NCBI RefSeq assembly: GCF_900111995.1
Contig: NZ_FOKF01000025.1
Coordinates: forward strand, 1-64,000
Length of the DNA stretch: 64,000 nt
Direction of reading: 5' to 3'
Source: Collimonas sp. OK607
GTDB taxonomy: Bacteria > Pseudomonadota > Gammaproteobacteria > Burkholderiales > Burkholderiaceae_D
Every line of letters begins with the position of its first letter. Position 1 is the stretch's first letter. The notes below the pieces were generated by a model. That model ran no database searches and had not been told where the DNA came from. It saw only the letters and a program-made list of their open reading frames with translations. The position numbers and the translations under genes are program-made. Positions 2,674-31,719 of this stretch are shown piece by piece.

Positions 2674-2937
2674 GATACTTCTCGCAAATTCTCGTCAGTT
2701 GGGAATAAAACAAAGACTGTTACTGGTGTGGGAGATAGGTCGATTTGCGGGAAAGCCACATTTCTGCCGCAATTATTTATGAGCAGATGCCGACCCAACC
2801 CTGTATTTTAACGTAAAAAGACTGTTTCTGCGAAACGAGGGTTGTGCCCGAGAGGCAAATAAAAGTACTTTTTGACAACAATTCAGCGCACACACTGCTC
2901 TCGTCAATTGCCATCGAAGGTGATTTGCCGGCCCATA

Positions 2938-3516
2938 TCATGATAAAAGTGACCACCGCGCCAGCGGCACATGACGAGTCCGGCCAAGCAGGCTGTGCAT
3001 CAAGACAAACTCGCTCACCCTCCAACGGATGGGCTCAATCGTCCCTGCGGGAACGAGGCGATTGTCGTACAACAAAGTGACGTGGGGCGTGTAATGCACA
3101 CTTGCAGCCGCGATTCCTACCTTTTGCAGCGCCCTGCCAAGAGTCTGCTGAAACGCTGTCACAGCGGCGACGCCATCGTCGCCCAGCAAGACCAACGGTC
3201 GGTTGCGCGGCCTGCCGTGAAAGCTCATCGCGCGGTCGAACTCGACGTCGAACGGCGCCGCCTTGACACTTGCGGCGGCCTTTATCGCTGCAGCAACGAT
3301 GCCTTCCGGCAGGCCCAGATAATCCCCCAGAAAATTCAAGGTGACATGCAAACGGCCGACCCCGATCGAGCGCCCTTTCAACTCATACATATCGCGCAGC
3401 AGCCCCCTCTGCCGCGCGATACCTGCGGCAGCATCCGGAGTCGGGGTAAGCGCAAAGAACAGGCGGTCGGTGGGGTGCGGTGCGTCGAAGCCCGGTAGAA
3501 AAAACTGTTCAGGCAT
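2938..3516 (-). CDS. thpR: RNA 2',3'-cyclic phosphodiesterase (2H family)
   Basis: LigT/ThpR-type 2H phosphoesterase acting on 2',3'-cyclic phosphate ends of RNA; the family was first described as a 2'-5' RNA ligase. Both signature HxTx motifs are present: HVTL at residues 57-60 and HVTL at 145-148, each in a beta-strand context (LHVTLNFLG and YTPHVTLLY). The length of 192 aa is normal. It stands alone on the minus strand between queE and pldA, with about 120 nt to pldA and a 264-nt gap to queE. Substrate in this organism is unknown. Confidence 0.88.
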   Translation of the reverse strand: MPEQFFLPGFDAPHPTDRLFFALTPTPDAAAGIARQRGLLRDMYELKGRSIGVGRLHVTLNFLGDYLGLPEGIVAAAIKAAASVKAAPFDVEFDRAMSFHGRPRNRPLVLLGDDGVAAVTAFQQTLGRALQKVGIAAASVHYTPHVTLLYDNRLVPAGTIEPIRWRVSEFVLMHSLLGRTRHVPLARWSLLS

Positions 3517-3639
3517 AGGGTGAATGCATCCGGGAGGCGGATGGCTGCAAATGAAAAAGGGAAAACCAGTTTACGCCTTTCTGGCAAGGCTGGCGCAAGC
3601 CCGGGACGTACATGGCCGCGCCGTGTGATCCCGGTTAAT

Positions 3640-4686
3640 TTAGAAGTCGATCAAGAATCCCGCACCGATCGATTTCTGCGAATAGTTGTAATCGATCAGG
3701 CTTTCGCCGTAGCCCGAAAATAACTGCACATAGCCCTTCAAATTAGTCGTAACCGGAAACGCCCAGCCAGCCTCGATCGCACCGTGCCCGGTCTGGAAGT
3801 TGTGCCGTGCCGTCATCGAATATTCGTAACCATTCTGGCGGTACGTGGCGCGCACGTCGCCATGCCCCATGTAGTCGACGATATCGATGTTGTCGTTGTT
3901 GGCTGCAGCATTGTCAAGACGTTTCCAAATCCTTGCTGACAGAGCCAGTTTGCCATATTCGGCTCCCAATTCAGTGTAGAAACGATTCCAGCTACGAGAC
4001 AAATTAGCGGACTGCCCATTCGATTGATGCACCAGTCCAAAATTGAGATAGCGGAAGTTGAAGTCACCGATCTTCATATTCAACGGTACCACCGCCATCA
4101 ACTCAGGCTGGTAATTTGTCTCGCGAAACGGGCTGGAAGCGGCTCGGCTATAGGCTTGCCAAAAACTTTGCTGCGTGTAGGCCAGCCACAGGTCGACCGG
4201 GCTGCCGGCGACGTTTTCCGCCATCTTCATCTTAAAACTGAGCTGATAAGTCAATTCCACGTGCTTCGGTTTGATTCCCTCCGAAATATATTTGGAGAAC
4301 GGTGCATCGTTGGTGGACGTGCTGTAGTTGGCCAGCAATACATAATTATTCATGTAAGGCTTAAGGGTAAACACGCCACGCTTGGCATTGGGATCGAGCT
4401 CCCAGCTCTGCACGGTACGCGAGATCGGCGACTCGCCCGGTGGGGCAATATTCTCTGCACTGACTGAGGGCTGCGGCATCGTTGGCGTAACCTGGGGCTC
4501 TGCAACGGCAACGGGAGCAGGCACATCCGCCGCGGCCTTGGCTAAAGCATCAAAGCAACCCAGGCGTGCGCTGGCGTCACCCAATACGGAACAGCGCGCC
4601 AGCTGTTGTTCGAGCTCAGCCGCATGCGATAGCGCTGATGACATGCAGGTTAAGGAAAGAACGATTCTCTTGATGTTTTTTTTCAT
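3640..4686 (-). CDS. pldA: Outer-membrane phospholipase A1
   Basis: OMPLA-family beta-barrel lipase that hydrolyses phospholipids misplaced in the outer leaflet. With the ATG at 4686 the protein is 348 aa and starts with a Sec signal (MKKNIKRIVL, cleavage near SHA-AEL). The catalytic region is conserved: His220 and Ser222 in HQSNGQS and Asn234 in SWNRFY. The mature N-terminus before the barrel (about residues 24-85) is low in complexity and rich in Pro, Ala and Val. No strong ribosome-binding site precedes either this start or the ATG 24 nt upstream; the choice rests on the signal peptide. Confidence 0.9.
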   Translation of the reverse strand: MKKNIKRIVLSLTCMSSALSHAAELEQQLARCSVLGDASARLGCFDALAKAAADVPAPVAVAEPQVTPTMPQPSVSAENIAPPGESPISRTVQSWELDPNAKRGVFTLKPYMNNYVLLANYSTSTNDAPFSKYISEGIKPKHVELTYQLSFKMKMAENVAGSPVDLWLAYTQQSFWQAYSRAASSPFRETNYQPELMAVVPLNMKIGDFNFRYLNFGLVHQSNGQSANLSRSWNRFYTELGAEYGKLALSARIWKRLDNAAANNDNIDIVDYMGHGDVRATYRQNGYEYSMTARHNFQTGHGAIEAGWAFPVTTNLKGYVQLFSGYGESLIDYNYSQKSIGAGFLIDF

Positions 4687-4876
4687 GCGGCATTTTAAAA
4701 CAAATACCATCCTGCCCTAGCCATGTGCATCCAAAGCTAAATTTGTGCCCTGCGCTCACTTCTTCCGCACCCTATCTTCATTTCACGGCTGAATTGACGC
4801 ACTTCGTCGCAATTGTATTGATTGCCTCTCCCGATGCCATAGACAATTATTCCTCTACAAACATTCGGGGAAAAAG

Positions 4877-5860
4877 ATGAAACTAAATATACCCGTCGCC
4901 CTAATCACGCTATTGCTCGCCCTGTTCAGCACCGGCGCCCAGGCAGTCGGATTCCAGCACGTTACCGCTCCAGACCCGGACGGCGCGCCGCTGGAGGTGG
5001 GCATCTGGTATCCCAGCAACGCATTGCCTGCACCGGTACCGATGGGGCGAATTACCCAGACCGTTGCTGTCAACGGCGCGATTGAGGGCAAAGGATTACC
5101 CCTGATTGTGATTTCCCATGGAACCGGCGGTTCTTTCCTTGGACACTATGACACCGCTATTGCTTTTGCCGAGGCCGGATATGTGGTTGCTGCAGTTACG
5201 CATACCGGTGACAACAACGCAGACCAGAGCCGCAGCGTCTCCATCATGGAGCGGCCGAGGCATATCAGCCGCCTGATCGATTACATGCTGTCCGATTGGG
5301 CGGGTCGTAATCAAATCAACCCGGCGCGTATCGGCATGTTTGGATTTTCTGCCGGCGGCTTCACCACCCTGGTGAGCATTGGCGGTGTCCCCGACCTCAC
5401 CAAGGTTAGCCCTTTCTGCCGAGAGCACACCACTGATTTCGCCTGCCAGCTGGTCGCCAAACATCCCGAGGCTAGCGTTGCTCCTTCTGTCAGCCACGAC
5501 GGTTCACAAGACCTGCGGATCAAAGCGGCTGTCGTTGCAGCACCGGCGCTGGGCTTCACGTTTGCGCCGGATGGGCTCAAGAACGTGACTATTCCCGTCG
5601 CGCTTTGGCGGGCGGAAAATGACGCTGTCTTGCCGCATCCCTGGTATGCCGAAGCTGTACACCTGGCGCTGCCGCGGGCGCCGGAATACCACGTAGTGGA
5701 AAATGCCGGACATTTCGATTTCCTGGCGCCTTGCGGCACGGCCCTCGCCTCTGTAGCGCCGTTTATATGTACCAGCGCACCGGGCTTTGATCGCACGGCA
5801 TTCCACACCAGACTCAATGCATCGGTAGTCGATTTTTTCGACAGGGTCCTGAAGCATTGA
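4877..5860 (+). CDS. Secreted alpha/beta hydrolase, dienelactone-hydrolase-like
   Basis: Predicted periplasmic or secreted alpha/beta-hydrolase of 327 aa. It has a clear signal peptide (MKLNIPVALITLLLALFSTG, cleavage after AQA). The nucleophile elbow is GFSAG with Ser158, an oxyanion-type HGTGGS lies near residue 81, and the acid and His candidates are in ENDAVLPHP and NAGHFDF. It resembles the lipoprotein-signal-peptide-like or platelet-activating-factor-acetylhydrolase-like hydrolases often annotated as dienelactone hydrolases; the substrate cannot be inferred. A GGGG-rich ribosome-binding site precedes the ATG. No operon partner: pldA is divergent, and the next gene is convergent. Confidence 0.8.
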   Translation: MKLNIPVALITLLLALFSTGAQAVGFQHVTAPDPDGAPLEVGIWYPSNALPAPVPMGRITQTVAVNGAIEGKGLPLIVISHGTGGSFLGHYDTAIAFAEAGYVVAAVTHTGDNNADQSRSVSIMERPRHISRLIDYMLSDWAGRNQINPARIGMFGFSAGGFTTLVSIGGVPDLTKVSPFCREHTTDFACQLVAKHPEASVAPSVSHDGSQDLRIKAAVVAAPALGFTFAPDGLKNVTIPVALWRAENDAVLPHPWYAEAVHLALPRAPEYHVVENAGHFDFLAPCGTALASVAPFICTSAPGFDRTAFHTRLNASVVDFFDRVLKH

Positions 5861-5927
5861 GGCATGGATTTATTACTCGTGCTGCAGACACGATGCATTC
5901 AAAATTACCGGCCGTGGCGTAGGGTGG

Positions 5928-5982
5928 GTGAAGTCGACCGAATGCCATCGAGGCGGTCTGGCAGCGTGAATCGCGACTTCAC
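5928..5982. repeat. Inverted repeat between convergent genes
   Basis: GTGAAGTCG at 5928-5936 and its reverse complement CGACTTCAC at 5974-5982 enclose a 37-nt loop, just after a GTAGGGTGGG motif. The site lies between the 3' ends of the hydrolase gene and the convergent 115-aa gene. It could form a hairpin in RNA from either side but has no adjacent T-run, so it is more likely an extragenic palindrome than a strong terminator. Confidence 0.4.
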
Positions 5983-5987
5983 GTCAA

Positions 5988-6335
5988 CTAAGACTTATCT
6001 CGCAAATTCTCGCCACGCCGATCACCCACTGTCGCCCGGATGCTTTTCGCGTGGTAGTCCATCAGGAGAATTTTGAGGTCCGACTGCAAGGACGGATCGT
6101 TGTAGAGGCTATGCAATAGCTGCGATTGCACGAACATGGTTTGCCGTTTGATGATTTCACAATCGTTGTGGCTGACGCCATGATTCATGTTGGCGACGAG
6201 TTCCAGAACATCGCGCTTGAGACGGTAAAAGAGTGAGCTGGCGAGGATGCTTTCAGCAGTAACGGGTATCTCTTTATCAGCCGTCTCCGTTGCCTGGGAC
6301 AGTACAAACTGATTCTCCGTTTTTTTCAAAAGCAT
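5988..6335 (-). CDS. Hypothetical protein, 115 aa
   Basis: I do not recognise this protein. It is predicted to be mostly alpha-helical, with no signal peptide or membrane segment, and has a charged C-terminus (RATVGDRRGENLRDK). The start is supported by a GAGGG ribosome-binding site 5 nt before the ATG at 6335. It is flanked by the hydrolase (convergent) and by a degenerate receiver protein on the same strand, 177 nt upstream. A role linked to the neighbouring signalling genes is possible but not shown by the sequence. Confidence 0.55.
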   Translation of the reverse strand: MLLKKTENQFVLSQATETADKEIPVTAESILASSLFYRLKRDVLELVANMNHGVSHNDCEIIKRQTMFVQSQLLHSLYNDPSLQSDLKILLMDYHAKSIRATVGDRRGENLRDKS

Positions 6336-6512
6336 GGTTTTCCCTCAATACATTGCAACACTGCATTTAACTCGGATTTAACACATTAGTTGATCGAATT
6401 ACATAACGAAACTACGGTTAATATGCCGCGTATATCAGCGACAAATCCGGTTGTGCGCGCCGAAAAATATTGTCGTCGCGTCCCCGATAACCTAAATGGA
6501 TCCGGCATTTCA

Positions 6513-7361
6513 TCACTGCTCGGATCGTCGCCACGATAGAAATTTTCCCAGCGCCGCCAATATCTGCGGCTGCTCTAAATGCCTGCTCAGGAAGCCGTCA
6601 CATTCAACCTGCCGCGCCCGCGCGTGATCGTACACAAAATTTCTATCAACCAGAAAAATGACTGCGACTCTTGTGTTTCGATACTGATGCTTGATCGTTG
6701 TGCACAAATCATAGGGATCAAAATCAGATAACTCCGGATTGATCAGTACCATCGAAATGGTTAGCCCGGTATACACTTCGGCGGCGGCGTCAGGATTTCC
6801 GACCCATTCGACTGGCACCACATAGTGCGCCATGGCGACTGACAGACTATCGCGAAACGTCGATTCTTCATCAATTACCAAGATACGATCGGTCGGCGGA
6901 GGTTTGGTCCGCATCCGCTCGTATTCAAGCGGATCGGTCAAATCCAGGTCGAGACGCTCACGCCGGCGACGTTCCGACACGCTGTTGTGCAATGCGCCGT
7001 CAGCGGAATCTTGCTTTGCCAGCATGATCAAACGCCGCTCAATCAAGGTATCCAGCGCGCTGAACAGTTTCAACCAGCGTATCGGCCGCTCGACAGTGGC
7101 AAACGGCAATTCCACATGGGGTGCGCCGACCAGCAACGCTGGCCGCAGATTATTGGGTTCCATGTCAGCCAGGATCGCCAGGGCTTTCAGGTCGTCGGCG
7201 TTCACCAGATACAGGTCCGGCTCCTGCAGGCTCTCGACGGACAAGCGGCAATATTGTTTCTGGCGGTTCTGCTGAACCGAAAAAGTGGCGTCGAAAATAT
7301 TAATTTCACGCGCAGAAAACCCGAGGAAACGAACTGCAAACGGGGTCTTTTGGTTTTTCAT
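6513..7361 (-). CDS. Response-regulator-like protein with degenerate receiver domain
   Basis: 282-aa soluble protein from the ATG at 7361, which has an AAGGG ribosome-binding site; an in-frame ATG at 7469 would add a non-homologous leader. Residues 157-275 look like a receiver domain: acidic pair in LVIDEES, a beta-3 strand MVLINPELSD and a beta-5 strand ending FLSR. The phosphoacceptor Asp position is Asn208 and the usual beta-5 Lys is Arg260, so normal phosphorylation is unlikely. Residues 8-110 also have alternating strand/helix texture (DLYLVNADD, RPALLVGAP, VERPIRWLKL) and may be a second pseudo-receiver. It is divergent from the LuxR-type regulator and hybrid kinase genes. Function unknown. 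Confidence 0.7.
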   Translation of the reverse strand: MKNQKTPFAVRFLGFSAREINIFDATFSVQQNRQKQYCRLSVESLQEPDLYLVNADDLKALAILADMEPNNLRPALLVGAPHVELPFATVERPIRWLKLFSALDTLIERRLIMLAKQDSADGALHNSVSERRRRERLDLDLTDPLEYERMRTKPPPTDRILVIDEESTFRDSLSVAMAHYVVPVEWVGNPDAAAEVYTGLTISMVLINPELSDFDPYDLCTTIKHQYRNTRVAVIFLVDRNFVYDHARARQVECDGFLSRHLEQPQILAALGKFLSWRRSEQ

Positions 7362-7628
7362 TTTTGTATGCCCTTTTGGACGAACACCGATGAAACCATG
7401 ACTTGCCGAGGAGAAAATCCCTACACCGCCGGGGTATTCGCCTCCACAACCGGTAAGCGCCATGCCCAACGCCTACGGCACCGGGATGTATTGAAAATAT
7501 TCTTGTTCTTTTTATAGTCGTTATATCTTCGATAATAAAGTCGTAGTTACACGTTGCCAATAGTCTGTTTGGACTGGCGGTGTTAAAAACGCTTGCGCTG
7601 CCCGCTCTGAAAAGGTTTAATCGGCGTC

Positions 7629-8240
7629 ATGTTTCCACTTAGCATTCTTCTCATTGACGATCACGCGATGTTCCGCAGCGGTATGGCTATGGTGCTGCGA
7701 GCGGGTATTTCGAACATCGACGTGTTCGAGGCCGGCTCACTAGAAGAGGCCATGCGCAGTCCGATCGAAGCACCTACCATTTTGCTGCTTGATATTCAGC
7801 TTCAAGGCTTGAACGGGCTGGAATGCATTGCCATACTGCAACGAAAATGGCCGCAGGTATCAATCATCATGTTGTCTGCCGATGCCACGCCTGCCACCAT
7901 GCGACTGGCGATGGAGCGCGGCGCGGCGGCATTCGTCTCCAAAGCAGATACCGCGACGAATATTCTTGCTGTCATCGAACAGTTGCTGCGCAAGGAACCT
8001 GCCGCAGGCACGCCCGGAGGAATCAGCGGCAACACTTCTTCCGAGCCACACCTGACGCCGCGTCAGTGCGAGGTACTCGATCTGCTATGTCAGGGATTGC
8101 CGAACAAGACGATCGGAAAACGGCTGGGTCTTTCGGAAAATACAGTGCGCGGACATGTGCAGGCGTTGCTGAGTTTCTTACAAGTGTCCAGCCGTTCCGA
8201 AGCGGCCTTTGCAGCGCGTCGTAGCGGCTTGGTTAGTTGA
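7629..8240 (+). CDS. Two-component response regulator, NarL/LuxR type
   Basis: 203-aa regulator with an N-terminal receiver (acidic Asp10/Asp11, phosphoacceptor Asp55 in LLLDIQ, Lys105 in FVSKA) and a C-terminal LuxR/GerE helix-turn-helix at about 142-195 (LTPRQCEVLDLL, NKTIGKRLGLSENTVRGHV). It should bind DNA as a dimer after phosphorylation. It precedes the hybrid histidine kinase by only 4 nt, so the two very probably form a signalling pair. The stimulus is unknown. Confidence 0.9.
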   Translation: MFPLSILLIDDHAMFRSGMAMVLRAGISNIDVFEAGSLEEAMRSPIEAPTILLLDIQLQGLNGLECIAILQRKWPQVSIIMLSADATPATMRLAMERGAAAFVSKADTATNILAVIEQLLRKEPAAGTPGGISGNTSSEPHLTPRQCEVLDLLCQGLPNKTIGKRLGLSENTVRGHVQALLSFLQVSSRSEAAFAARRSGLVS

Positions 8241-8244
8241 GGTG

Positions 8245-10008
8245 ATGCGCCGCTTACTGCGCCTTAGCGAAGGTCGCATACTGGCGGAACAGTTGCGGCT
8301 GCTGCTAGGTAATGTCGGCAGCTCGGTCATTCCTGCGCTGCTGTTGGCCGTGGTCCTGGTCTGGGCGTTATCCAACGACAGCAACGCCTTGGGACTGAGG
8401 GTGTGGTGCGCAGCAGTGGTCTTGTCCAAGCTTTACTCTGCGCATCACGCGCGCCGCATTCTTGCCTCAGGCATTACAATTGAACATGCTCACCGCCTGG
8501 TCTTGATGTTGCTGGCGCTGAACATGGTGGATGGCGCGGCTTGGGGCGCATTGGCTTGGGTTACGCTCGATACGGCCTCGGTCACCGGGAGCATATTGGT
8601 AATCTCTGTCTTGGCGGGCATTGCAGGCAGCTCAATGTCGCTGCTTGCACCGGTGCTGCCGGTCTTCCTTGTGTTTATCGCGCTCGAGTGTATCGTCACG
8701 GCAACCAAGTTCTGGCAGATGGGAGATCCAGCCTATAGCGCGCTGGCGCTGGCGCTCACATTGTTTCTTATCACGCTCGTCCTGCAGGCACGTAACAGCG
8801 CTATTGCCGTGCGCGCCGCAATCAACCTGCGCTTCGAGAATGTCGAACTGCTGGCGCGCTTACGCGATGAAACCATGAAGGTACAGGACGCGCATCGGGA
8901 GGCGGTTCTGGCCAATCTGGCTAAATCCAAATTCCTCGCGGCGGCCAGCCATGATTTGCGCCAGCCGATTCACGCGCTGGGGCTGTTTCTGGAAGTGCTG
9001 GCGCGCAGCGAACTTACCGCGACCCAGCGCACTGTGCTTGGCAGCGCCCGCTCGGTGTCCGAGGCATCCGCCGGGATGCTCAACACACTGCTGGATTTTT
9101 CACGAATCGAAGCGGGTGTCGTCGATGCACAAGTATTACCATTTCACCTGCAGCCATTGCTACACAAGATTGAAAATGAACTGGCGCCGCAAGCCAACGC
9201 TAAGGGGCTCATTTACCGCACGCGCGAGACCCATGTGGCCTTGCAGTCTGATCCGGCGCTGGTGGAACTGATTCTGCGCAACCTGGTATCCAATGCAATC
9301 CGCTACTCCGAGCGGGGTGGCGTGCTGGTAGCTTGTCGTACCCGCGGCAATCAAACGCGACTGGAAGTGTGGGATACGGGTATCGGTATCGACGCGCTTC
9401 AGCACCAGGAGATATTTCGCGAATTCCATCAGCTTGGCAATGTCGAGCGGGACCGCAGTAAAGGGCTTGGTTTGGGCTTGGCTATTGCGGATGGCCTGGC
9501 GCGCAAGCTGGGACATGAATTATCGTTGTCGTCCATACCGGGACGTGGCAGCGTATTCAGGCTGACCTTGCCTAATGCGCGCGTTCCGGTGATAAGCGAT
9601 GAGCTTGAAACGACGCATACGTTTGTGCAAAGGCTCGACATACGCGTACTTGTCATTGATGATGATGAAGCCGTGCGCGCAGGCATGCTGCAACTGCTAC
9701 ACGATTGGGGCTGCAAGTGCGAGGCGGTTGAATCGATCGAGGAAGCACTAATCTCGGCACGCACCCATCGACCGGATATCGTCATCAGCGATTTCCGATT
9801 GCGCAAGCAGCACACGGGGGCACAGGCTATTGCCGCGTTGCGCGAAGAGTTCGGCAAAGATTTGCCGGCACTTCTCATTACTGGCGACACGGCGCCAGAG
9901 CGGTTGCGCGATGCACGTGCCAGTGGCATACCGCTGTTGCATAAACCCGTAGCACCGAGCCAGTTGCATAGGAGACTGGCGAGCATATTGGCCGATATGG
10001 ATAAATAG
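8245..10008 (+). CDS. Hybrid sensor histidine kinase / response regulator
   Basis: 587-aa membrane kinase. About five or six hydrophobic segments lie in residues 20-190, followed by a short coiled linker, HisKA with His236 in ASHDLRQPIHAL, HATPase with N-box LRNLVSNAIRYSE, DTGIGID and GLGLGLAI, and a C-terminal receiver with Asp516 in ISDFRL and Lys in LLHKP. The HDLRQP H-box is the type common in Burkholderiales hybrid kinases. ATG at 8245 or GTG at 8242 is likely, because GAGG overlaps the end of the preceding regulator; an ATG at 8209 inside that gene is possible. No periplasmic sensor domain is seen, so sensing is probably membrane-embedded. Confidence 0.88.
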   Translation: MRRLLRLSEGRILAEQLRLLLGNVGSSVIPALLLAVVLVWALSNDSNALGLRVWCAAVVLSKLYSAHHARRILASGITIEHAHRLVLMLLALNMVDGAAWGALAWVTLDTASVTGSILVISVLAGIAGSSMSLLAPVLPVFLVFIALECIVTATKFWQMGDPAYSALALALTLFLITLVLQARNSAIAVRAAINLRFENVELLARLRDETMKVQDAHREAVLANLAKSKFLAAASHDLRQPIHALGLFLEVLARSELTATQRTVLGSARSVSEASAGMLNTLLDFSRIEAGVVDAQVLPFHLQPLLHKIENELAPQANAKGLIYRTRETHVALQSDPALVELILRNLVSNAIRYSERGGVLVACRTRGNQTRLEVWDTGIGIDALQHQEIFREFHQLGNVERDRSKGLGLGLAIADGLARKLGHELSLSSIPGRGSVFRLTLPNARVPVISDELETTHTFVQRLDIRVLVIDDDEAVRAGMLQLLHDWGCKCEAVESIEEALISARTHRPDIVISDFRLRKQHTGAQAIAALREEFGKDLPALLITGDTAPERLRDARASGIPLLHKPVAPSQLHRRLASILADMDK

Positions 10009-10121
10009 TGGGCGGCAAGAGGAAATGGTCACGCTCAATGCCAGCATAGTTGCGTTAGTTGCCGCTATCACGCACTAGTATGAAAAAAACGCAATGCCGA
10101 ACCAAAAGGTAAAAAAGTAAA

Positions 10122-10145
10122 AAATCCCGCATTTACGCGGGCTTT
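10122..10145 (-). terminator. Intrinsic terminator, probable ancestral guaA terminator
   Basis: Stem CCCGC/GCGGG at 10126-10130 and 10137-10141, extended by A/T pairs to AAATCCCGC and GCGGGCTTT with one mismatch, followed on the minus strand by a T-rich run. The same hairpin with slightly different sequence lies at 15141-15164, directly after the intact guaA. The duplication of terminator plus gene end is part of the evidence for an inserted island. Confidence 0.65.
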
Positions 10146-10185
10146 CAGTCATTTTCCACTTTTGAGTACTAGCGAGTGCCAGGCA

Positions 10186-10205
10186 TCAGATCATTCCCAC
10201 TCAAT
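10186..10205 (-). repeat. Direct repeat of guaA 3' end (putative att site, left)
   Basis: The 20 bp tcagatcattcccactcaat are identical to 15201-15220, which encode the last codons and stop of guaA. Similarity continues leftward in diverged form (AGCGAGTGCCAGG against GGCGAGTACCAGA) through the terminator hairpin. This is the expected footprint of site-specific insertion at the 3' end of guaA. Confidence 0.7.
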
Positions 10206-10264
10206 TGTTTCTTGCTTTTGCGAACCCGCATGGATATTAGGTCCAGCGAGAAAGAGACATGCTG

Positions 10265-10286
10265 TTTACCGTCATTTTTACCGTCA
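10265..10286. repeat. Tandem 10-bp repeat near island edge
   Basis: TTTACCGTCA occurs at 10265-10274 and again at 10277-10286, giving a 12-bp period. It lies 60 bp inside the left repeat. Short direct repeats at this position could be arm-type integrase binding sites, but no integrase is present to support this. Confidence 0.35.
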
Positions 10287-10382
10287 AAATATGACCCTCA
10301 GTCATGCAACAACTGACAGTTGCTATCGGCTGAAGCAAAAGATGCATTTTCAATATTACCTCCCAGTCGCGCAAATCGTAGT

Positions 10383-12782
10383 TCAAATCAGGCGAGGCGC
10401 GGTCTCCCCATCAATGCCGATCCGATATCCCATGGCACGGTATCCTTTCTGGCGTTTGTCCCACATGCGCAGCAACGCTGGATGACCGGCATCAACGTAG
10501 TCGATAATGCGCACGTCGGTCTTGCTAGCGTGCTCCCGATGCAGACGACCGGCATACTGCTGTAACGTGCCCTTCCACGATATCGGCATCGCTAGCACGA
10601 GCGTATCGAGCGGAGGATGGTCGAAACCTTCGCCGACGAGTTTGCCGGTGGCGAGAAGAACGCGGGGTGCGTCTGACGACAGAATTTCAAGTGACTTGAG
10701 TATCGTGGCTCTCTGCTTTTTCGATAGTCGGCCGTGTAGCGTAAAGAAGTGTTCTACGCGTCCACCCAACGCAGTGTTGATCGCCTCCAAATGCTCGGTT
10801 CGCTCAGTCAAGACCAGCACTTTGCGCCCCTGACGAAAAGATTCAACGATTTCATCAGCGATGGCTTGCGTTCGACCTGCATCGTTCGCTACATGCCGAA
10901 AAATGTCCTGAATAGCAGCGTCTGGAGGCAACTCAATCCGGTTATCTATCATGCGCGGCAATACCACCAAATCATGTGGCGCGTTGGCGGGCTTGGCTGC
11001 AGTGTGCCGAATTGGCCCGCACTGCATGAAGATGACCGGCTGCTGCCCATCGCGGCGAATCGGGGTGGCAGTCAGCCCAAGCACGTACTTAGCCTTGGCA
11101 CGCTTCAGAATCGCCTCAAACGAAAACGCAGACAGATGGTGACATTCATCAACCACGATGTGGCCGTAGTTTTCGATCAGATCGCTGGTCTCTCCTTGTC
11201 GTGACAAGGACTGCATCACTGCGATGTCGATCTTACCGGTGGACTTGACCTTGCCTCCGCCAATAGTGCCGACCACGCCTTTGCCTATACCGAGAAAGGT
11301 TTGCAACCGCTCCTGCCACTGCTTGAGCAATTCAGTTCGATGCACCAGCACCAAGGTGTTCACACCGCGCCTCGCGATCAGCGCTGCAGCAGTCACAGTT
11401 TTCCCGAAGGCGGTTGGCGCACACAGCACGCCGGTATCGAAACGCAGCATCGCGGCTACCGCAGCCTCTTGATCGGTACGTAGCGTCCCGGCGAAGCCTA
11501 CGTCTAGCGGCTCACCTGAAAAGCGCTCATCGTTGATGTCACCGCGAATACCGTTATTGCGCAGCAATTCGATGGCTTCATCCAGGCAGCCACGCGGCAA
11601 TGCGATGTGTTTCGAATAGTTCTCAGCGCAGCCGATCACGCGCGCCTTATCCCAAGTGCTCAAGCGCATTGCTTGTGCTTTGTAAAACTCCGGGTTCTGG
11701 AATGCCGCCAGACGGATCAGCCTGTTGGCCAACGGCTGGGGTAGTTGCGCTTTCTCGAAATAGAGTAAATTCGCCAGCGTCAGCTTGACTGTCTGAGGCA
11801 TCTCCCCAGCCAATTTCGTCGATGCAGCCGCCGCGCGCTTCCACGGCTCCTGTTGATCCTCATCGGCGATGAAGGTAACGTCCAGTGGATGCGTGCCACC
11901 CGTGGCTTGCAGGATGGTGGATTCAATGTAGCTCGGTGACATCGGCCGGATGGACGCAAGAAAAGCCCATTGGTCGGGATAAGGATGAAATTCATCGTCC
12001 ACGAACACGCTGCAACCGTTCTCGCGTGGCTTTTTCTGCAAGGGCAACGCGATCAGGTTGCCGAAGCCGCCTTTTGGCACGGTGTCCTGATTCGGAAACA
12101 GCCGATCGTAAGAACTGAGCTTCAATTGCCTGGTGCGAGCGCAAGTGTGGCTAATGATGGCAGTGCCGAGCCGCCGGGCGTCCCGCGCCGGAACGCTGGA
12201 GGCAAAGAATATCCATGCGTGGGCACCGTTGCCTGAGCGTGAAATTTCCAGCGCTACCGGCACGCCCAGTTCACGACACGATTGCACAAAGGCCCGTGCG
12301 TCGGCGCGCCACTCGGCCTCGTCAAAGTCAACTGCCAGGAAGTGACAGCTGTCATCCGTCAACAACGCATAGACGCCGACCGTGTGTTCGCCAGCGAGGT
12401 GATCGTAGATGATCGAGTCCGATAGCGGAATCAATAGCCGGTTGCCACAATCGGAGCATTTTATGCGTGGCTTGTTGCAGACACCCGCGCGCCACTCGTT
12501 GGCGCAGGCGGGTGAGTACCCGGCTTTGCCGGCCTTGCTTTCCCAGCGGATCGGATAGACGTCAGTGCGGCCATGAAACAAACGGCGGAACAGGTCAAGC
12601 TTTTCCTTCGTACTCAGTGATGGTGGTTCGACGCATAGTTCCGGCGCGAGCACTTCAATACTTGCTGGCCGCTGGGATAATTGCCAGCGGATTTTATGGG
12701 AATCTAGCAGGTCGATCAAGCGGGCGTTCTCGGCGCGCAGGCGCTCCAGCTCGGCCCCTGAATCGCCTGTCATACTGCTCAT
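10383..12782 (-). CDS. Primase-helicase fusion (AEP primase domain plus SF2 DEAD/DEAH helicase)
   Basis: 799 aa. A short coiled coil (10-30) is followed by a Cys cluster (C93, C102, C109, C112) and an archaeo-eukaryotic primase-like domain with the metal motif VDFDE (151-155) and GNGAHAW (185-190), as found in TOTE-type conflict proteins. An SF2 helicase follows: Walker A PTAFGKT (456-462), DECH (545-548), TATP (571-574) and motif VI QYAGRLHR near the C-terminus. Both enzymatic halves keep their key acidic and P-loop residues. It is the largest gene of the guaA island, preceded by a 34-aa ORF with ATGA overlap. A defence or mobile-element replication role is likely; which one is not decided by the sequence. 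Confidence 0.82.
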   Translation of the reverse strand: MSSMTGDSGAELERLRAENARLIDLLDSHKIRWQLSQRPASIEVLAPELCVEPPSLSTKEKLDLFRRLFHGRTDVYPIRWESKAGKAGYSPACANEWRAGVCNKPRIKCSDCGNRLLIPLSDSIIYDHLAGEHTVGVYALLTDDSCHFLAVDFDEAEWRADARAFVQSCRELGVPVALEISRSGNGAHAWIFFASSVPARDARRLGTAIISHTCARTRQLKLSSYDRLFPNQDTVPKGGFGNLIALPLQKKPRENGCSVFVDDEFHPYPDQWAFLASIRPMSPSYIESTILQATGGTHPLDVTFIADEDQQEPWKRAAAASTKLAGEMPQTVKLTLANLLYFEKAQLPQPLANRLIRLAAFQNPEFYKAQAMRLSTWDKARVIGCAENYSKHIALPRGCLDEAIELLRNNGIRGDINDERFSGEPLDVGFAGTLRTDQEAAVAAMLRFDTGVLCAPTAFGKTVTAAALIARRGVNTLVLVHRTELLKQWQERLQTFLGIGKGVVGTIGGGKVKSTGKIDIAVMQSLSRQGETSDLIENYGHIVVDECHHLSAFSFEAILKRAKAKYVLGLTATPIRRDGQQPVIFMQCGPIRHTAAKPANAPHDLVVLPRMIDNRIELPPDAAIQDIFRHVANDAGRTQAIADEIVESFRQGRKVLVLTERTEHLEAINTALGGRVEHFFTLHGRLSKKQRATILKSLEILSSDAPRVLLATGKLVGEGFDHPPLDTLVLAMPISWKGTLQQYAGRLHREHASKTDVRIIDYVDAGHPALLRMWDKRQKGYRAMGYRIGIDGETAPRLI

Positions 12783-12883
12783 TGCGGGCGCTCCGCATTC
12801 GGCGCGGAGTCATCGCCGAGGTGAAAGAAAATGTGGCCGACGACGCGCCAGGTGCCGATGAAAGATTGTGCAGCTTTCTTCAT
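12779..12883 (-). CDS. Small ORF, 34 aa, coupled to the primase-helicase
   Basis: ATG at 12883 to TGA at 12779, encoding a 34-residue basic and aromatic peptide starting MKKAAQSFIGTWRVVGHIFF. Its stop overlaps the helicase start codon as ATGA, the arrangement of a translationally coupled pair. No convincing ribosome-binding site precedes it. It could be a true leader peptide or small partner, or the tail of a decayed gene such as darG, whose remnant lies just upstream. Confidence 0.35.
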   Translation of the reverse strand: MKKAAQSFIGTWRVVGHIFFHLGDDSAPNAERPQ

Positions 12884-12988
12884 AACTCATATTCCAGTCA
12901 GGCAAACTGCGTCAAGACGGATTGTTCAATCTCGCTGTATTCCGACATACCTGCCTTCAAGCTATAGTGGTTTGACTGTCCCGCGCGC

Positions 12989-13066
12989 TCACGCGTTCCA
13001 ACGCAATGCCAATCGCTCGCTCATCGAACAAGCGGCTAGTAAATTGCCTTGCGCAAATATCATCAT
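12989..13066 (-). pseudogene. darG-like antitoxin remnant (N-terminal fragment)
   Basis: From the ATG at 13066 the frame reads MMIFAQGNLLAA, which matches the start of DarG macrodomain antitoxins (typically MI-TQGNLLEA). It is followed after an apparent internal deletion by MSERLALRWNA, which resembles the MGKGIALQFK region, then a stop at 12989. The order downstream of a darT remnant on the same strand is the normal darT-darG order. Identification rests on recalled family motifs over a short fragment. Confidence 0.45.
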
Positions 13067-13460
13067 CAGAATTACCGCCATGTCCGGGCGAATCGACAGG
13101 GCAAGGGTGCGCGCCTGGACCTGCTGATCAATGCTTTGTTTCAGCGTTTCAGTATAGCAAACGTACCGAGCACGCCTTGAATTGGCAAATGTCGATACAG
13201 CAACGCCTCGGCCTGATAGCGCTCCATCTTCCGTGGATCGTCAGCATCGCGCTTGAAGTCTCGCCGCTGCAGGAGAGGCCAGTCAATCTCCCTCAATTGT
13301 GCCAGATCACTATATTAATTAGTCCAGTCCGGGATGGCAGCGCACCATCGGCAAGAAAACCACCCGTGCCTGAAAATTTCCTCAGTTCATCGACCGGTTT
13401 TCAGAAGACATCGACTTGCAAGCGGTCAAGCGATAACTGCTGACAATTCGGAATCTGCAT
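13067..13460 (-). pseudogene. darT-like toxin remnant (DUF4433 ADP-ribosyltransferase, frameshifted)
   Basis: The C-terminal half of a DarT-type DNA ADP-ribosyltransferase can be read if the frame is changed twice. One frame gives GTGGFLADGALPSRT, the next gives SDLAQLREIDWPLLQRRDF and then MERYQAEALLYRHLP, and a third gives a Cys-containing segment ending SIRPD. These correspond to the FSDGHG, LDxIDW, RxxQAEFLVHR-P and C-terminal RPxW regions of DUF4433. A stop also interrupts the upstream part (VDVF*KPVDE), and no N-terminal NAD-binding region remains. It is therefore inactive. Confidence 0.6.
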
Positions 13461-13512
13461 CCGCAAATGAAGCTCTGCGCCACGGCGGTGGTGGACTATC
13501 AGGAACTCGGCC

Positions 13513-13558
13513 GTTCCATTTATTCGTCACTTATTTGCATTCGACGAATAAATGGAAC
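13513..13558. promoter_or_regulatory. Perfect 16-bp inverted repeat, putative AbiEi operator
   Basis: GTTCCATTTATTCGTC at 13513-13528 and its exact reverse complement at 13543-13558 are separated by 14 bp. The right arm covers an ATG at 13552 and ends 14 bp before the preferred abiEi start at 13573. AbiEi antitoxins of characterised type IV systems repress their own operon by binding inverted repeats of this kind, so autoregulation is likely. Confidence 0.65.
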
Positions 13559-13572
13559 ATACTGAACGGACC

Positions 13573-14178
13573 ATGCGCCATGAAACCCACACCCAACGCG
13601 TCCTTGACCTGCTTCGTCAGAAGGGGATGCTGCGTCCCAGCGATCTTGATGGCATCGGCGCTCCCCGGGTGGTCCTGACGCGCATGACGGCTAACGGGCA
13701 ACTGGAGAAAGCAGGTCGCGGCCTATATCGGCTGCCCGACAGCCAAGGCTCCGAACATGAGAGCCTGGCCGCCATCGCAACCAAGGTGCCACAGGCGGTA
13801 TTTTGCCTGCTCACCGCCCTGCAGTTCCACGAACTGACCACGCAACTGCCACGCCAGGTCTGGATCGCCATGCCGCGCGGCAGTCATGTGCCCAAGGTCG
13901 ACTATCCGCCGATCAAGATGGTCCAGTACTCCGGCGAAGCGTATTCCGAAGGGATTGAGGTTGTTGAACGTGATCAAGTCGCGCTGCGGGTCTACTGTGT
14001 GGCCAAGACCATCGCCGACTGCTTCAAGCACCGCAACAAGATCGGACTGGACGTGGCGCTGGAGGCACTCAAGGATGCACGATCGCAAAAGAAGGCCAGC
14101 GCTGACGACCTCTGGCGCTTCGCCAAGATTTGCCGCGTCGCTAATGTGATGCGCCCCTACCTCGAGGTGATTGAATGA
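13573..14178 (+). CDS. AbiEi family antitoxin (type IV toxin-antitoxin)
   Basis: About 201 aa. The N-terminal winged helix-turn-helix reads QRVLDLLRQKGMLRPSDLDGIG, then VVLTRM and GRGLYRLP, and a C-terminal domain follows. In characterised systems AbiEi represses the operon and neutralises AbiEii without direct binding. An in-frame ATG at 13552 lies inside the palindromic operator, so I prefer the ATG at 13573. It overlaps abiEii as ATGA. The pair lies in the guaA island and is opposite in strand to the primase-helicase. Confidence 0.85.
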   Translation: MRHETHTQRVLDLLRQKGMLRPSDLDGIGAPRVVLTRMTANGQLEKAGRGLYRLPDSQGSEHESLAAIATKVPQAVFCLLTALQFHELTTQLPRQVWIAMPRGSHVPKVDYPPIKMVQYSGEAYSEGIEVVERDQVALRVYCVAKTIADCFKHRNKIGLDVALEALKDARSQKKASADDLWRFAKICRVANVMRPYLEVIE

Positions 14179-15077
14179 CCAAAGATCTCGCCGCGTCGGT
14201 GCGGGCACGCCTTCTGAATGTCGCCAAGGCGCAGGGCACGGACTTCAACCAGGTTCTGGTGCGCTTTGCGCTGGAGCGCATGCTGTACCGCCTGAGCCAA
14301 TCCAAGCATGCCGATCAATTCCTTCTCAAGGGGGCATTACTGTTTACGCTCTGGTATGACATGCCCCACCGGCCAACGCGTGATGCAGATCTGCTCGGCT
14401 TCGGGCCGAGCGACCTTGCATCGATCACCCAGACGTTCCGTGACATCGCAGGCGTCGATGTTGAGGATGGCATCATCTTCGATCCTGCAACGGTGAGCGT
14501 TGAAGAGATCCGTAAAGATGCGGGGTACCCCGGCGCTAGGGTGTTGATTACGGGCGAAATTGCCAAGGCACGGTGCAGGACGCAGATCGACATCGGGTTC
14601 GGTGACGCGGTCACGCCTGGCCCGGTTCACGCCATCTATCCGGTGCTGATCGAAGACCTCCCGGCTCCTCGGCTGCGCACATACCCTGCCTACACCGTCG
14701 TCTCGGAAAAGCTTCACGCTATTGTCTTGCTCGGCATGACCAATAGTCGCTTGAAGGATTACCTAGACATCTGGGTGCTGCTGGATCGCGAAGCGCTCAA
14801 CGCCCACACTTTGGCCAGAGCGATCGCTGCAACCTTCGTTCGGCGGGGGATGTCGGTTCCGGTCGCTCTGCCCATTGGCCTGACTGATGAGTTTGCTACC
14901 GATCCATCACGGCAGACCATGTGGCTTGCATTCCTCAAGAAGAACCAACTCGCCGTTACGCCACTGCTCGAAGTGGTGACGACCCTTCGAACAATGCTGG
15001 GGCCAGCACTCATTCTGGCCACAGCGCTCGAGGCCACAGCAGGCGCAGTTGATGTTGACAAACAGCCCTCTTCGTAG
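14175..15077 (+). CDS. AbiEii family nucleotidyltransferase toxin
   Basis: 300-aa member of the DUF1814 nucleotidyltransferase family, the toxin of type IV abortive-infection modules. Motifs are intact: LKGALLF (Lys52, Gly53), RPTRDADLL with Asp70/Asp72, QIDIGFGD with Asp139, SEKLHA with Lys179 and RLKDYLD (192-198). Related toxins add nucleotides to tRNA acceptor stems. Everything visible suggests an active enzyme. Translation is coupled to abiEi through the 4-nt overlap. Confidence 0.87.
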   Translation: MTKDLAASVRARLLNVAKAQGTDFNQVLVRFALERMLYRLSQSKHADQFLLKGALLFTLWYDMPHRPTRDADLLGFGPSDLASITQTFRDIAGVDVEDGIIFDPATVSVEEIRKDAGYPGARVLITGEIAKARCRTQIDIGFGDAVTPGPVHAIYPVLIEDLPAPRLRTYPAYTVVSEKLHAIVLLGMTNSRLKDYLDIWVLLDREALNAHTLARAIAATFVRRGMSVPVALPIGLTDEFATDPSRQTMWLAFLKKNQLAVTPLLEVVTTLRTMLGPALILATALEATAGAVDVDKQPSS

Positions 15078-15140
15078 GTCTCAGTGTCTCAGCCGGCAGG
15101 ATGAGCACAGGTGTCCATCCTACGACTAACAAGAAAACAA

Positions 15141-15164
15141 AAAGCCCGCATTCACGCGGGCTTT
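15141..15164 (-). terminator. guaA intrinsic terminator
   Basis: AAAGCCCGC (15141-15149) pairs with GCGGGCTTT (15156-15164) around a 6-nt loop; the minus strand then runs TTGTTTT. It is positioned 42 nt after the guaA stop. A diverged duplicate is found at 10122-10145. Confidence 0.8.
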
Positions 15165-15200
15165 GGAGCAGTATCTACTTCTAACTGGCGAGTACCAGAC

Positions 15201-15220
15201 TCAGATCATTCCCACTCAAT
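15201..15220 (-). repeat. Direct repeat within guaA 3' end (putative att site, right)
   Basis: Partner of the repeat at 10186-10205, 20 of 20 bases identical. It covers the stop codon and the last four codons of guaA, so insertion at this site restores an intact gene. Confidence 0.7.
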
Positions 15221-16786
15221 CGTAGCTGGCGGTTTACCCGAAATGTCATACACCACGCGATTGATCCCACGTACTTCATTGATGATGCGGTTAGACACCC
15301 GCCCCAGCAACTCATGCGGCAGGTGCGCCCAATGCGCAGTCATGAAGTCCTGCGTTTGCACTGCACGCAAGGCAACCACGTATTCATAAGTACGGCCATC
15401 GCCCATCACGCCAACCGACTTGACTGGCAAGAACACAGCAAACGCCTGGCTGGTCTTGTCGTACCAGGACTCATCCTCGTCGTCTTTGGTATTGCGCAGT
15501 TCTTCAATGAAGATGGCGTCGGCGCGACGCAGCAGGTCGGCGAATTCCTTTTTGACTTCACCAAGGATCCGTACACCCAAACCCGGGCCAGGGAACGGAT
15601 GGCGATACACCATTGAATGCGGCAAACCGAGCGCAACGCCCAGCTTGCGCACTTCATCCTTGAACAGTTCGCGCAGCGGTTCCAGCAATTGCAGGTTCAG
15701 CGTTTCCGGCAAACCGCCGACATTGTGGTGGCTCTTGATGGTGTGCGCGGCGTTCTTGCCCTTGCCTGCACTTTCGATCACATCCGGGTAAATGGTCCCT
15801 TGTGCCAGCCACTTTGCATTCTTCAGCTTGGCAGATTCGACCTGGAACACTTCGACGAATTCACGGCCGATGATCTTGCGCTTGGCTTCCGGATCGGTGA
15901 CGCCGGTCAGGTGGCCCATGAACTGTGCGGTGGCGTCGACATGGATCACCTTGACGCCGAGATTCTGGGCAAACATCTCCATTACCATCTTGCCTTCGTC
16001 GAGGCGCAACAGGCCGTGGTCGACGAATACGCATGTCAGCTGATCGCCGATGGCTCGATGGATCAGGGCTGCGGCGACACTGCTGTCGACGCCGCCGGAC
16101 AAGCCCAGGATTACCTCGTCGCTACCAACTTGCTTACGGATCGACTCAACCGCCTCGGCGATGTAGTCCGGCATGTTCCAGTCTGGTGTGCAGCCGCAGA
16201 TATCGATGACAAAACGCGTCAGGATCGCTTCGCCTTGCACGGTGTGTGTGACTTCCGGATGGAACTGCACAGCATAAAATTTACGCTCTTCGTCGGCCAT
16301 GCCGGCGACCGGGCAGTTCGGGGTCGATGCCATCAGCTTGAAGCCGGGCGGCATTTCATTGACCTTGTCGCCGTGGCTCATCCAGACCTTCAGCATGGCA
16401 TGCGAATCGGGTGTAACGAAATCGCTGATATCTTTCAGCAGCGCTGTATGACCGCGCGCGCGGACTTCGGCGTAACCGAATTCACGGACCTTGCCCATCT
16501 CGACCTTGCCGCCCAGTTGCTCGGCCATGGTTTGCATGCCGTAGCAGATGCCGAACACCGGCACACCAAGCTCGAATACCGCTTGCGGCGCGCGTGGGGT
16601 ATCGCCGTCGGTGACGCTATTCGGGCCGCCTGACAAGATCACGCCGGCAGCGCCGTAGTTACGGATGAATTCGTCGGACACATCGTAAGGATAAACTTCA
16701 GAAAACACGCCGGCTTCGCGCACGCGCCGTGCGATCAGTTGGGTTACCTGGGAGCCGAAATCGAGGATGAGGATTTTTGAGTGCAT
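15206..16786 (-). CDS. guaA: GMP synthase (glutamine-hydrolysing)
   Basis: Amidates XMP to GMP in purine synthesis. The N-terminal class I glutamine amidotransferase domain has Cys81 in GICYGMQ and the His176/Glu178 pair in FHPE; the ATP pyrophosphatase domain has the PP-loop SGGVDSS at 230-236; the C-terminal dimerisation domain ends in ATIEWE. 526 aa, full length. It lies 114 nt downstream of guaB on the same strand, the standard purine pair. Its 3' end is the insertion site of the accessory island. Confidence 0.98.
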
Positions 16787-30870: not shown

Positions 30871-31719
30871 ATGCTAGATGCTGCTCCTGTTCAACTGGTC
30901 CCTGCCAATCGCACGGTATTCTTTGTTTCCGACGGCACCGGCATAACCGCCGAGACTTTCGGCCACTCGGTGTTGACGCAGTTCGAGTTGCGTTTCAAAC
31001 AAGTACGCCTGCCCTTTGTCGATACCCTGGACAAGGCATACGACGCAACCCGCAAGATCAACGAAGCTTTTGCAGCAGACGGCAAATTGCCAATTGTTTT
31101 TTCGACACTGGTTAAAGCCGACTTGTCAAAAGTCATCCAGCACGCCAAGGCGATGCACATGGATTTGATCCAGACGTTTGTCGAACCGCTGGAAAATGAA
31201 CTGGGGGTCAAATCCACCCACACTATCGGCCGCAGCCATAACACTGCCAACACCGACGAATATAAGAACCGGATCGAAGCGATCAACTTTTCACTGGCGC
31301 ATGATGATGGCCAGTCGCACAAGAACCTGGCCGATGCCGACGTCATCCTGGTTGGCGTATCGCGTTCGGGCAAAACCCCTACCAGTCTTTACCTGGCGAT
31401 GCAGTTCGGCGTCAAAGCGGCCAACTATCCATTGATTCCGGAAGATTTCGAGCGCGACAAATTGCCTAGCGGCCTGTTGCCGTTCAAGCAAAAGATTTTC
31501 GGGCTGACGATTGCGGCCGACCGTTTGTCGGAAATCCGCAATGAGCGTCGGCCGGGCAGCAAATATGCGGCGCTGGCAAATTGTCGTTATGAGGTGAATG
31601 AAGCGGAAAAGATCATGCGGCGCGAAGGGATTCGCTGGATGTCGTCTACTACCAAGTCGATTGAGGAAATCGCGGCGACGATTTTGCAGGATATCAAGCC
31701 GGAGATACGGACTTTCTAG
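30871..31719 (+). CDS. ppsR: PEP synthase regulatory protein (kinase-pyrophosphorylase)
   Basis: DUF299-family bifunctional enzyme that phosphorylates PEP synthase on a Thr using ADP, and removes the phosphate with inorganic phosphate. 282 aa with [17 protein letters not shown] at the start, IGRSH in the middle and the P-loop-like [15 protein letters not shown] near 157. Full length. The gene next to ppsA in divergent orientation is the usual arrangement in Betaproteobacteria. Confidence 0.95.

What the first reader, a model, noticed from the sequence alone, without database searches (positions are those of the whole stretch)
10186..15220. A guaA 3'-end genomic island with defence cargo and no integrase
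A 20-bp stretch including the guaA stop codon is repeated exactly at 10186-10205 and 15201-15220, and diverged similarity extends through the terminator hairpin in both copies. Everything between is accessory (primase-helicase, AbiE, darTG debris). guaA is a known integration site, but the recombinase is missing, so the island may be stranded or maintained for its cargo. The doubled terminator suggests the insert brought its own guaA end from a diverged donor.
Basis: partly seen in the sequence, partly recalled or inferred. Interest (0 to 1): 0.75.

Follow-up and report, generated by a model that had tools for sequence, protein, structure and literature searches.

The report
Stranded defence island at gene guaA
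A 5-kb piece of foreign DNA carrying two phage-defence-like systems sits at the end of the guaA gene; it looks like the worn-down remnant of a known kind of mobile island that has lost its integrase but still carries one intact integrase-recognition end.

Summary
The repeat is real: ATTGAGTGGGAATGATCTGA occurs at 10186-10205 and 15201-15220 and, with up to 3 mismatches, nowhere else in the window. The 5 kb between is one layer of a stack of site-specific insertions at the guaA 3' end. In 14 of 40 same-family loci of other genera queE starts within 150 bp of guaA, so window 2674-15205 is inserted DNA. Collimonas relatives keep intact guaA integrases there (3 of 14) or truncated ones (2 of 14), and tandem cores.

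The window's far end has the complete class II pair (10267-10285). Its guaA end has core and terminator but no such sites and no integrase. The genome's nearest integrase is 38% identical: the island looks stranded. AbiE and the TOTE primase-helicase are open, with dN/dS 0.12-0.16. A 95% identical copy lies 28 kb downstream of guaA in C. antrihumi, beyond an integrase-bearing stretch.

Verdict: a decayed, probably chimeric, CIME-like guaA island.

The parts
15206..16786 (-). guaA (GMP synthase), host gene whose last 15 bp lie in the core
   Evidence: ORF; Pfam GATase + GMP_synt_C
15201..15220 (-). guaA-proximal core ATTGAGTGGGAATGATCTGA; no class I or II heptamer in the 320 bp inside the island
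15132..15165 (-). terminator hairpin with T run, 40 bp after the proximal core, the island's guaA-side end
   Evidence: hairpin 40-48 bp after 23 of 27 genus cores
14175..15077 (+). AbiEii nucleotidyltransferase toxin, 300 aa, open
   Evidence: PF08843 4.3e-44; PADLOC AbiEii 2.4e-100
13552..14178 (+). AbiEi antitoxin/repressor, 208 aa, open
   Evidence: PF13338; PADLOC AbiEi 1.7e-91
13513..13558 (.). perfect 16-bp inverted repeat (GTTCCATTTATTCGTC), possible AbiEi operator
   Evidence: I5; operator role inferred
12947..13333 (-). darTG relic (darT end/darG start and darG end)
   Evidence: 77-79% DNA match to an open darT-darG pair in G007
10383..12782 (-). AEP-TOTE primase/polymerase + superfamily-2 helicase, 799 aa, open
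   Evidence: PF22548 1.9e-101, ResIII, Helicase_C
10279..10285 (-). class II heptamer GACGGTA, 80 bp before the distal core (probable integrase arm site)
10267..10273 (-). class II heptamer GACGGTA, 68 bp before the distal core (probable integrase arm site)
10186..10205 (-). distal core, exact copy of the proximal core; with the two heptamers a complete element right end
10113..10146 (-). terminator after the distal core, i.e. the guaA end that stood here before this layer inserted
   Evidence: flank 0.80-0.82 identical to guaA ends of G002, G005, G008, G013 against 0.70-0.73 for the proximal copy, but equal (0.70) against G014
2674..10185 (.). older accessory layer (histidine kinase 8209-10008, regulators, esterase-like, PLA1, 2'-5' RNA ligase) up to queE 2038-2673
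   Evidence: window 4001-10075 shared with G014 contig C35 at 90-93% in pieces; absent where queE abuts guaA

Best explanation
The segment is the remnant of mobile islands that a tyrosine integrase inserted at the last 15 bp of guaA. Shown: the far (right) end is complete, with two class II heptamers at -80 and -68 and a perfect core, the geometry found at the ends of related elements. Shown: the guaA-side (left) end keeps the core and a terminator, while the heptamers and integrase gene found there in intact relatives are absent. Inferred: the heptamers are integrase arm sites. Inferred: two elements had stacked at guaA, a class I element nearest the gene (terminator, ATGGTAT arms, integrase) and a class II element behind it (GACGGTA arms, integrase, AbiE + TOTE-helicase cargo); one deletion from just behind the class I terminator to just before AbiE removed both integrases, the left arms and the inner junction. 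Inferred: the result cannot excise by itself in this genome, guaA still ends correctly and is terminated by the island's hairpin, and the defence cargo is kept by selection.
For: Exact cores. 28 core copies in 14 of 15 genus genomes, 0 reversed-pattern control hits; the 10 extra copies that share a contig with guaA (7 genomes) all lie downstream of it on its strand. Intact guaA integrases in G001, G004, G008, truncated in G003, G012; the G001 one has Pfam arm-binding, central and catalytic domains. Heptamer pairs at fixed distance: 9 of 14 distal cores have both and 3 have one. Family search: 18 class II places in 16 of 392 genomes (matched length 90 or 91 although 15 lengths were allowed) and 19 class I places in 17 of 392 (88-90), no control hits. 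L041, another genus, is an intact class II case: integrase after guaA, pair at -79/-67, right core 41 bp before queE. Empty guaA-queE sites in 14 of 40 loci. Cargo copy in C. antrihumi behind an integrase-bearing stretch and a core with the same right end. dN/dS 0.12-0.16 for the cargo.
Against: No genome was seen with this layer missing and the next layer joined to guaA, so the excision product is inferred. G014 holds AbiE next to the histidine kinase without the distal core, and C. antrihumi has a different sequence left of AbiE, so the one-deletion history is one of several that fit. 2 of 14 distal cores have no heptamer. 4 of 27 genus cores and 13 of 24 family loci without adjacent queE have no hairpin after the core; class II left ends (G004, L034, L036, L041) lack it. 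G010 and G011 could not be examined because their contigs end 189 and 93 bp after guaA.
Confidence: 0.83

Rival explanations
1. A non-autonomous cassette that still moves: any incoming guaA integrase recombines its two cores, as GIsul2 integrase does for the integrase-less CR2-sul2 unit, and modules at guaA are shuffled in trans.
For: 8 of 13 core-to-core segments in the genus have no integrase hit, 6 of them 1.3 to 5.0 kb long. CR2-sul2 precedent (PMC9376610 passages). AbiE genes of the window and C. antrihumi differ at 7-9% of 4-fold sites against 19% in guaA and the histidine kinase.
Against: The window's guaA-side end has no heptamers and its genome has no guaA-type integrase (best 38%). 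guaB in the same pair also differs at only 9.0% of 4-fold sites. G014's AbiE divergence matches its chromosome.
Confidence: 0.22
2. Not site-specific recombination: the guaA end and terminator were duplicated by homologous or illegitimate recombination.
For: Similarity of the two copies runs about 100 bp past the core, more than an integrase should need.
Against: Sequence upstream of distal cores is not guaA but carries heptamers at fixed register; integrases lie next to guaA in relatives.
Confidence: 0.03
3. The window's layer is a class II element whose left end was swapped by recombination between two terminator-bearing cores, rather than by one deletion.
For: Core plus terminator is repeated (23 of 27 genus cores) and could serve as homology; G014 shares the same left end.
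Against: No donor stack with the required order was found; the integrase would still have to be lost.
Confidence: 0.25

Closest known systems
guaA-3'-end genomic islands and ICEs (GIsul2, ICERspD18B)
   Same: Same gene end and core (GAGTGGGA within the repeat; PMC9376610 and PMC7775301 passages). Tyrosine integrase next to guaA in the relatives; the C. antrihumi stretch also has TrfA and TrbL. The G004 integrase is 66.5% identical to one on a Sphingomonas plasmid and 57.6% to integrases on Acinetobacter, E. coli and other plasmids.
   Different: No integrase and no transfer genes here; cargo is AbiE plus a TOTE primase-helicase; the guaA-side heptamers are missing. The GIsul2 integrase itself was not compared by name.
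CIME (cis-mobilizable element) in tandem accretions, definition seen in passages of PMC5704250
   Same: Core-bounded, no integration or transfer genes, lies in a tandem stack.
   Different: attL is incomplete: core and terminator only.
CR2-sul2 unit of GIsul2 (PMC9376610, passages)
   Same: Integrase-less unit between two guaA-type cores.
   Different: CR2-sul2 was shown to excise with the integrase of its own island; here no integrase is present and nothing is shown.
AbiE type IV toxin-antitoxin; AEP-TOTE primase-helicase; DarTG relic
   Same: Family matches.
   Different: Nothing unusual in the proteins was found; no structure was predicted.

Membership tests
guaA-3'-end genomic island | insertion at the guaA 3' end between direct repeats holding GAGTGGGA | tested here: met
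guaA-3'-end genomic island | empty site in relatives | tested here: met
   guaA-queE within 150 bp in 14 of 40 family loci of other genera; in 0 of the 12 genus relatives with more than 200 bp fetched; the exact single-layer empty site was not found
guaA-3'-end genomic island | own tyrosine integrase | tested here: not met
CIME | no integration or transfer genes | tested here: met
CIME | retains attL and attR | tested here: inconclusive
   right end complete with heptamers; left end has the core but no heptamers
CIME | can be mobilised together with, or by, an adjoining element | not testable with these tools
   needs an excision assay
AbiE type IV toxin-antitoxin | adjacent AbiEi and AbiEii of the families | tested here: met
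TOTE conflict system | AEP-TOTE primase joined to a helicase | tested here: met
   that the fusion defines the system is recalled, other parts of such systems were not looked for, function not tested

The most novel reading that the evidence does not exclude
The guaA end in Collimonas and its family works as a cassette array. Two classes of guaA integrase with different arm sites but a shared core stack, trim and reshuffle short modules of one to three genes. Class I ends bring their own terminator, so that guaA stays insulated while defence and other cargo is exchanged. This would be an integron-like gene store built on a phage-type tyrosine integrase, and the window island one of its integrase-less cassettes.
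Probability: 0.18. Interest if true: 0.62.

Novelty: new member of a known kind. Interest (0 to 1): 0.36.

Why it matters
guaA is a known hotspot, but how islands there lose their integrase while keeping their cargo is rarely visible step by step. The heptamer pairs give a simple DNA signature, without a single reversed-control hit in 392 genomes, for finding the far end of such islands even after the integrase is gone. The core-plus-terminator end suggests how these elements avoid harming an essential gene. If short modules can be moved in trans, the guaA site would be a gene-exchange platform for defence systems.

Tried and rejected
A third core in the window's older layer (2674-10150, guaA's strand) was sought: nothing better than 5 mismatches of 15. 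The far border near queE in the window is decayed; G013 keeps a core-like relic there (3 mismatches), and G002 and G009 look, by eye, as if they keep remnants of a class II right end. tRNA-type attachment sites: no tRNA gene in the window. Homologous duplication of guaA: rejected, see rivals. Helper integrase elsewhere in the genome: best 38% identity to the G004 and to the G001 integrase. Helicase relatives in other genera, 73-78% identical among the 80 loci kept of 312, were used only to find the C. antrihumi copy. Papers: Collimonas islands (listing; PMC4690342 passages, no occurrence of guaA in its main text); guaA with terminator (listing of 5, none opened for this) and 'TOTE conflict' (0 papers). 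This is no proof that anything here is unpublished; most subscription papers are not in the library. Song et al. 2012 and Pavlovic et al. 2004 were seen only as citations inside other papers.

Rows left out of counts: in the core scan two 2-mismatch hits in G004 (one on the other strand, one at 30985 without any of the end features) were dropped before the counts (27 cores); 3-mismatch hits were not counted. The places of the class I and II family hits were checked against guaA only for the Collimonas genomes and L041 (G145).
Full report
THE OBSERVATION. The 20-mer ATTGAGTGGGAATGATCTGA stands at 10186-10205 and 15201-15220 on the minus strand and nowhere else in the window with up to 3 mismatches; shuffles give none. 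The proximal copy holds the guaA stop (guaA 15206-16786). After each core come a diverged stretch and a terminator hairpin. Between the copies lie an AEP-TOTE primase-helicase, AbiEi, AbiEii and a darTG relic. No integrase: none of the genome's 16 PF00589 matches is on contig C89, and three guaA integrases find nothing in the window (one search had used only two true integrases, because one query was an antisense ORF by mistake).

WHAT SURROUNDS IT. The genus search gave 15 genomes, all with guaA. I fetched the downstream DNA of the 14 relatives; two of these contigs end within 200 bp. guaA integrases are intact in G001, G004 and G008 and truncated in G003 and G012. The core pattern is found 28 times in 14 of 15 genomes, with no hit of the reversed control: 14 at guaA itself; 10 more on the same contig as guaA (7 genomes), all downstream on its strand; 2 on G014:C35 beside the histidine-kinase layer; and 2 that are not part of a stack, G006:C235 (another guaA end, possibly a contaminating contig) and G014:C24 (before an RNA-ligase-like gene). 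For 40 loci of other genera in the same family, queE begins within 150 bp of the guaA stop in 14, and guaA-type integrases were found in 4 (L034, L036, L041, L057). Window 2674-15205 is therefore inserted relative to the guaA-queE order.

THE STACK. I count 13 core-to-core segments in 9 of the 13 genus genomes with enough sequence, the window's included. Three hold an intact integrase: 27.9 kb in G001, 18.8 kb in G004, 36.8 kb in G008. Two hold a truncated one: G003 11.8 kb and G012 5.0 kb. Eight have no integrase hit: G013 1.3 and 2.3 kb, G014 1.9 kb, G008 2.6 kb, G012 3.1 and 11.3 kb, G005 11.0 kb and the window's 5.0 kb. Cargo of the short ones is mixed: AbiE pairs, a DUF4382 protein and a protein without Pfam match; further open frames were listed but not assigned.

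THE HEPTAMERS. Upstream of distal cores two heptamers recur at fixed places: ATGGTAT near -78/-66 (class I) or GACGGTA near -80/-68 (class II). Of 14 distal cores, 9 have both, 3 have one and 2 have none. Behind guaA the same heptamers stand at +128 to +276 in 7 of 13 genomes, among them the three with an intact integrase; the window has none there. Background density is 0.15-0.18 per kb. In 392 family genomes the class II pair plus core occurs 18 times in 16 genomes and the class I pair 19 times in 17, with no control hit. The matches are 90 or 91 bp long (class II) and 88 to 90 bp (class I) although 15 lengths were allowed in each. The window's distal end is one of the class II matches. L041, from another genus, is an intact counterpart: class II integrase after guaA, right core with the pair at -79/-67, queE 41 bp beyond. 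That these heptamers bind the integrase arm domain (PF13356) is inferred.

THE TERMINATOR. A hairpin with a T run follows within 150 bp of the core at 23 of 27 genus cores (40-48 bp after it), in 0 of 16 loci with queE within 170 bp, where there is often little room for one, and in 11 of 24 other family loci. L057, another genus with a class I integrase 92% identical to that of G001, has the same kind of hairpin at +45. So the hairpin most likely travels with class I ends; four class II left ends (G004, L034, L036, L041) lack it. It may also have become native in Collimonas; the data do not exclude this.

THE CARGO ELSEWHERE. Window 10569-15099 matches C. antrihumi contig NZ_JAGQED010000024.1 (= G001:C16, by equal length and coordinates) at 94.8% over 4542 bp. 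There it lies about 28 kb downstream of guaA, after an integrase-bearing stretch with a Wadjet set and after a core with the same class II right end as the window's distal one; an unrelated sequence, probably an insertion element, breaks its helicase at the contig end. The integrase next to guaA there is class I, so that stretch is itself composite. G014 has AbiE and the same left end at 88.7%, but its AbiE joins the histidine kinase directly and its AbiEii is broken into shorter frames. Fourfold-site divergence between the window and G001 is 7-9% in AbiE and 12% in the helicase, against 19% in guaA and the histidine kinase and 25% in the response regulator; guaB, at 9.0%, weakens the contrast. 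For G014 cargo and chromosome agree. dN/dS is 0.12-0.16 for the cargo against G001, so selection has kept the proteins, though part of that history may lie in other hosts.

MECHANISM. Shown: site-specific layers at guaA; complete class II right end; core-and-terminator left end without heptamers or integrase. Inferred: a class I element stacked before a class II element, then one deletion that took both integrases. Because no integrase above 38% identity to the class I or class II type remains, the layer should be immobile now.

COMPARISON. GIsul2 uses the core GAGTGGGA, has three att sites, and its integrase excises the integrase-less CR2-sul2 unit (PMC9376610, passages). ICERspD18B has the repeat ACAATNGAGTGGGAATNNTT at guaA (PMC7775301, passages). 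The CIME definition and the accretion model are from PMC5704250 (passages). The window island works like a decayed CIME in such a stack; full membership is open because attL is incomplete.

LIMITS. No excision was observed. The family loci are 40 of the 143 non-genus genomes in which guaA was found, chosen mostly by nearness of guaA, so fractions should not be read as frequencies.

Noticed in passing
L153:1354-9611: C. antrihumi carries matches to all four Wadjet proteins (JetA, B, C, D) inside the guaA stack, followed by a second AbiE-type pair just before the inner core.
   Followed up: partly
L214:9767-11402: G014 has a 1.9-kb core-bounded module that consists of one AbiE-type pair (DUF6088 + AbiEii) and little else; AbiE pairs occur in the guaA stacks of the window, G001 and G014.
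   Followed up: partly
L038, L039, L043: In three loci of other genera queE begins within the last 4 bp of guaA, so the genes overlap and may be translationally coupled; the insertions break this.
   Followed up: no
L239:1501-1515 (G014:C24:248327): A core copy away from guaA, shortly before a 2'-5' RNA-ligase-like gene (by eye), the same gene type that lies in the guaA-queE gap of the window.
   Followed up: no
L020 (G013), first 1.3 kb behind guaA: A minimal module with class I heptamers at both ends and one 166-aa gene without Pfam match; no integrase hit.
   Followed up: partly
window 13513-13573: Perfect 16-bp inverted repeat across the predicted AbiEi start; the true start may be the ATG at 13573, since the G014 copy has a stop codon in the extension before it.
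   Followed up: partly
L243 (G006:C235): A second guaA end in G006 on another contig with a different downstream sequence; perhaps a contaminating contig.
   Followed up: no
L256 (G044:C261:1734-1823 and 4988-5077): Two class II right ends 3.3 kb apart on one contig of a genome in which the guaA search found no match; a possible stack at another place.
   Followed up: no
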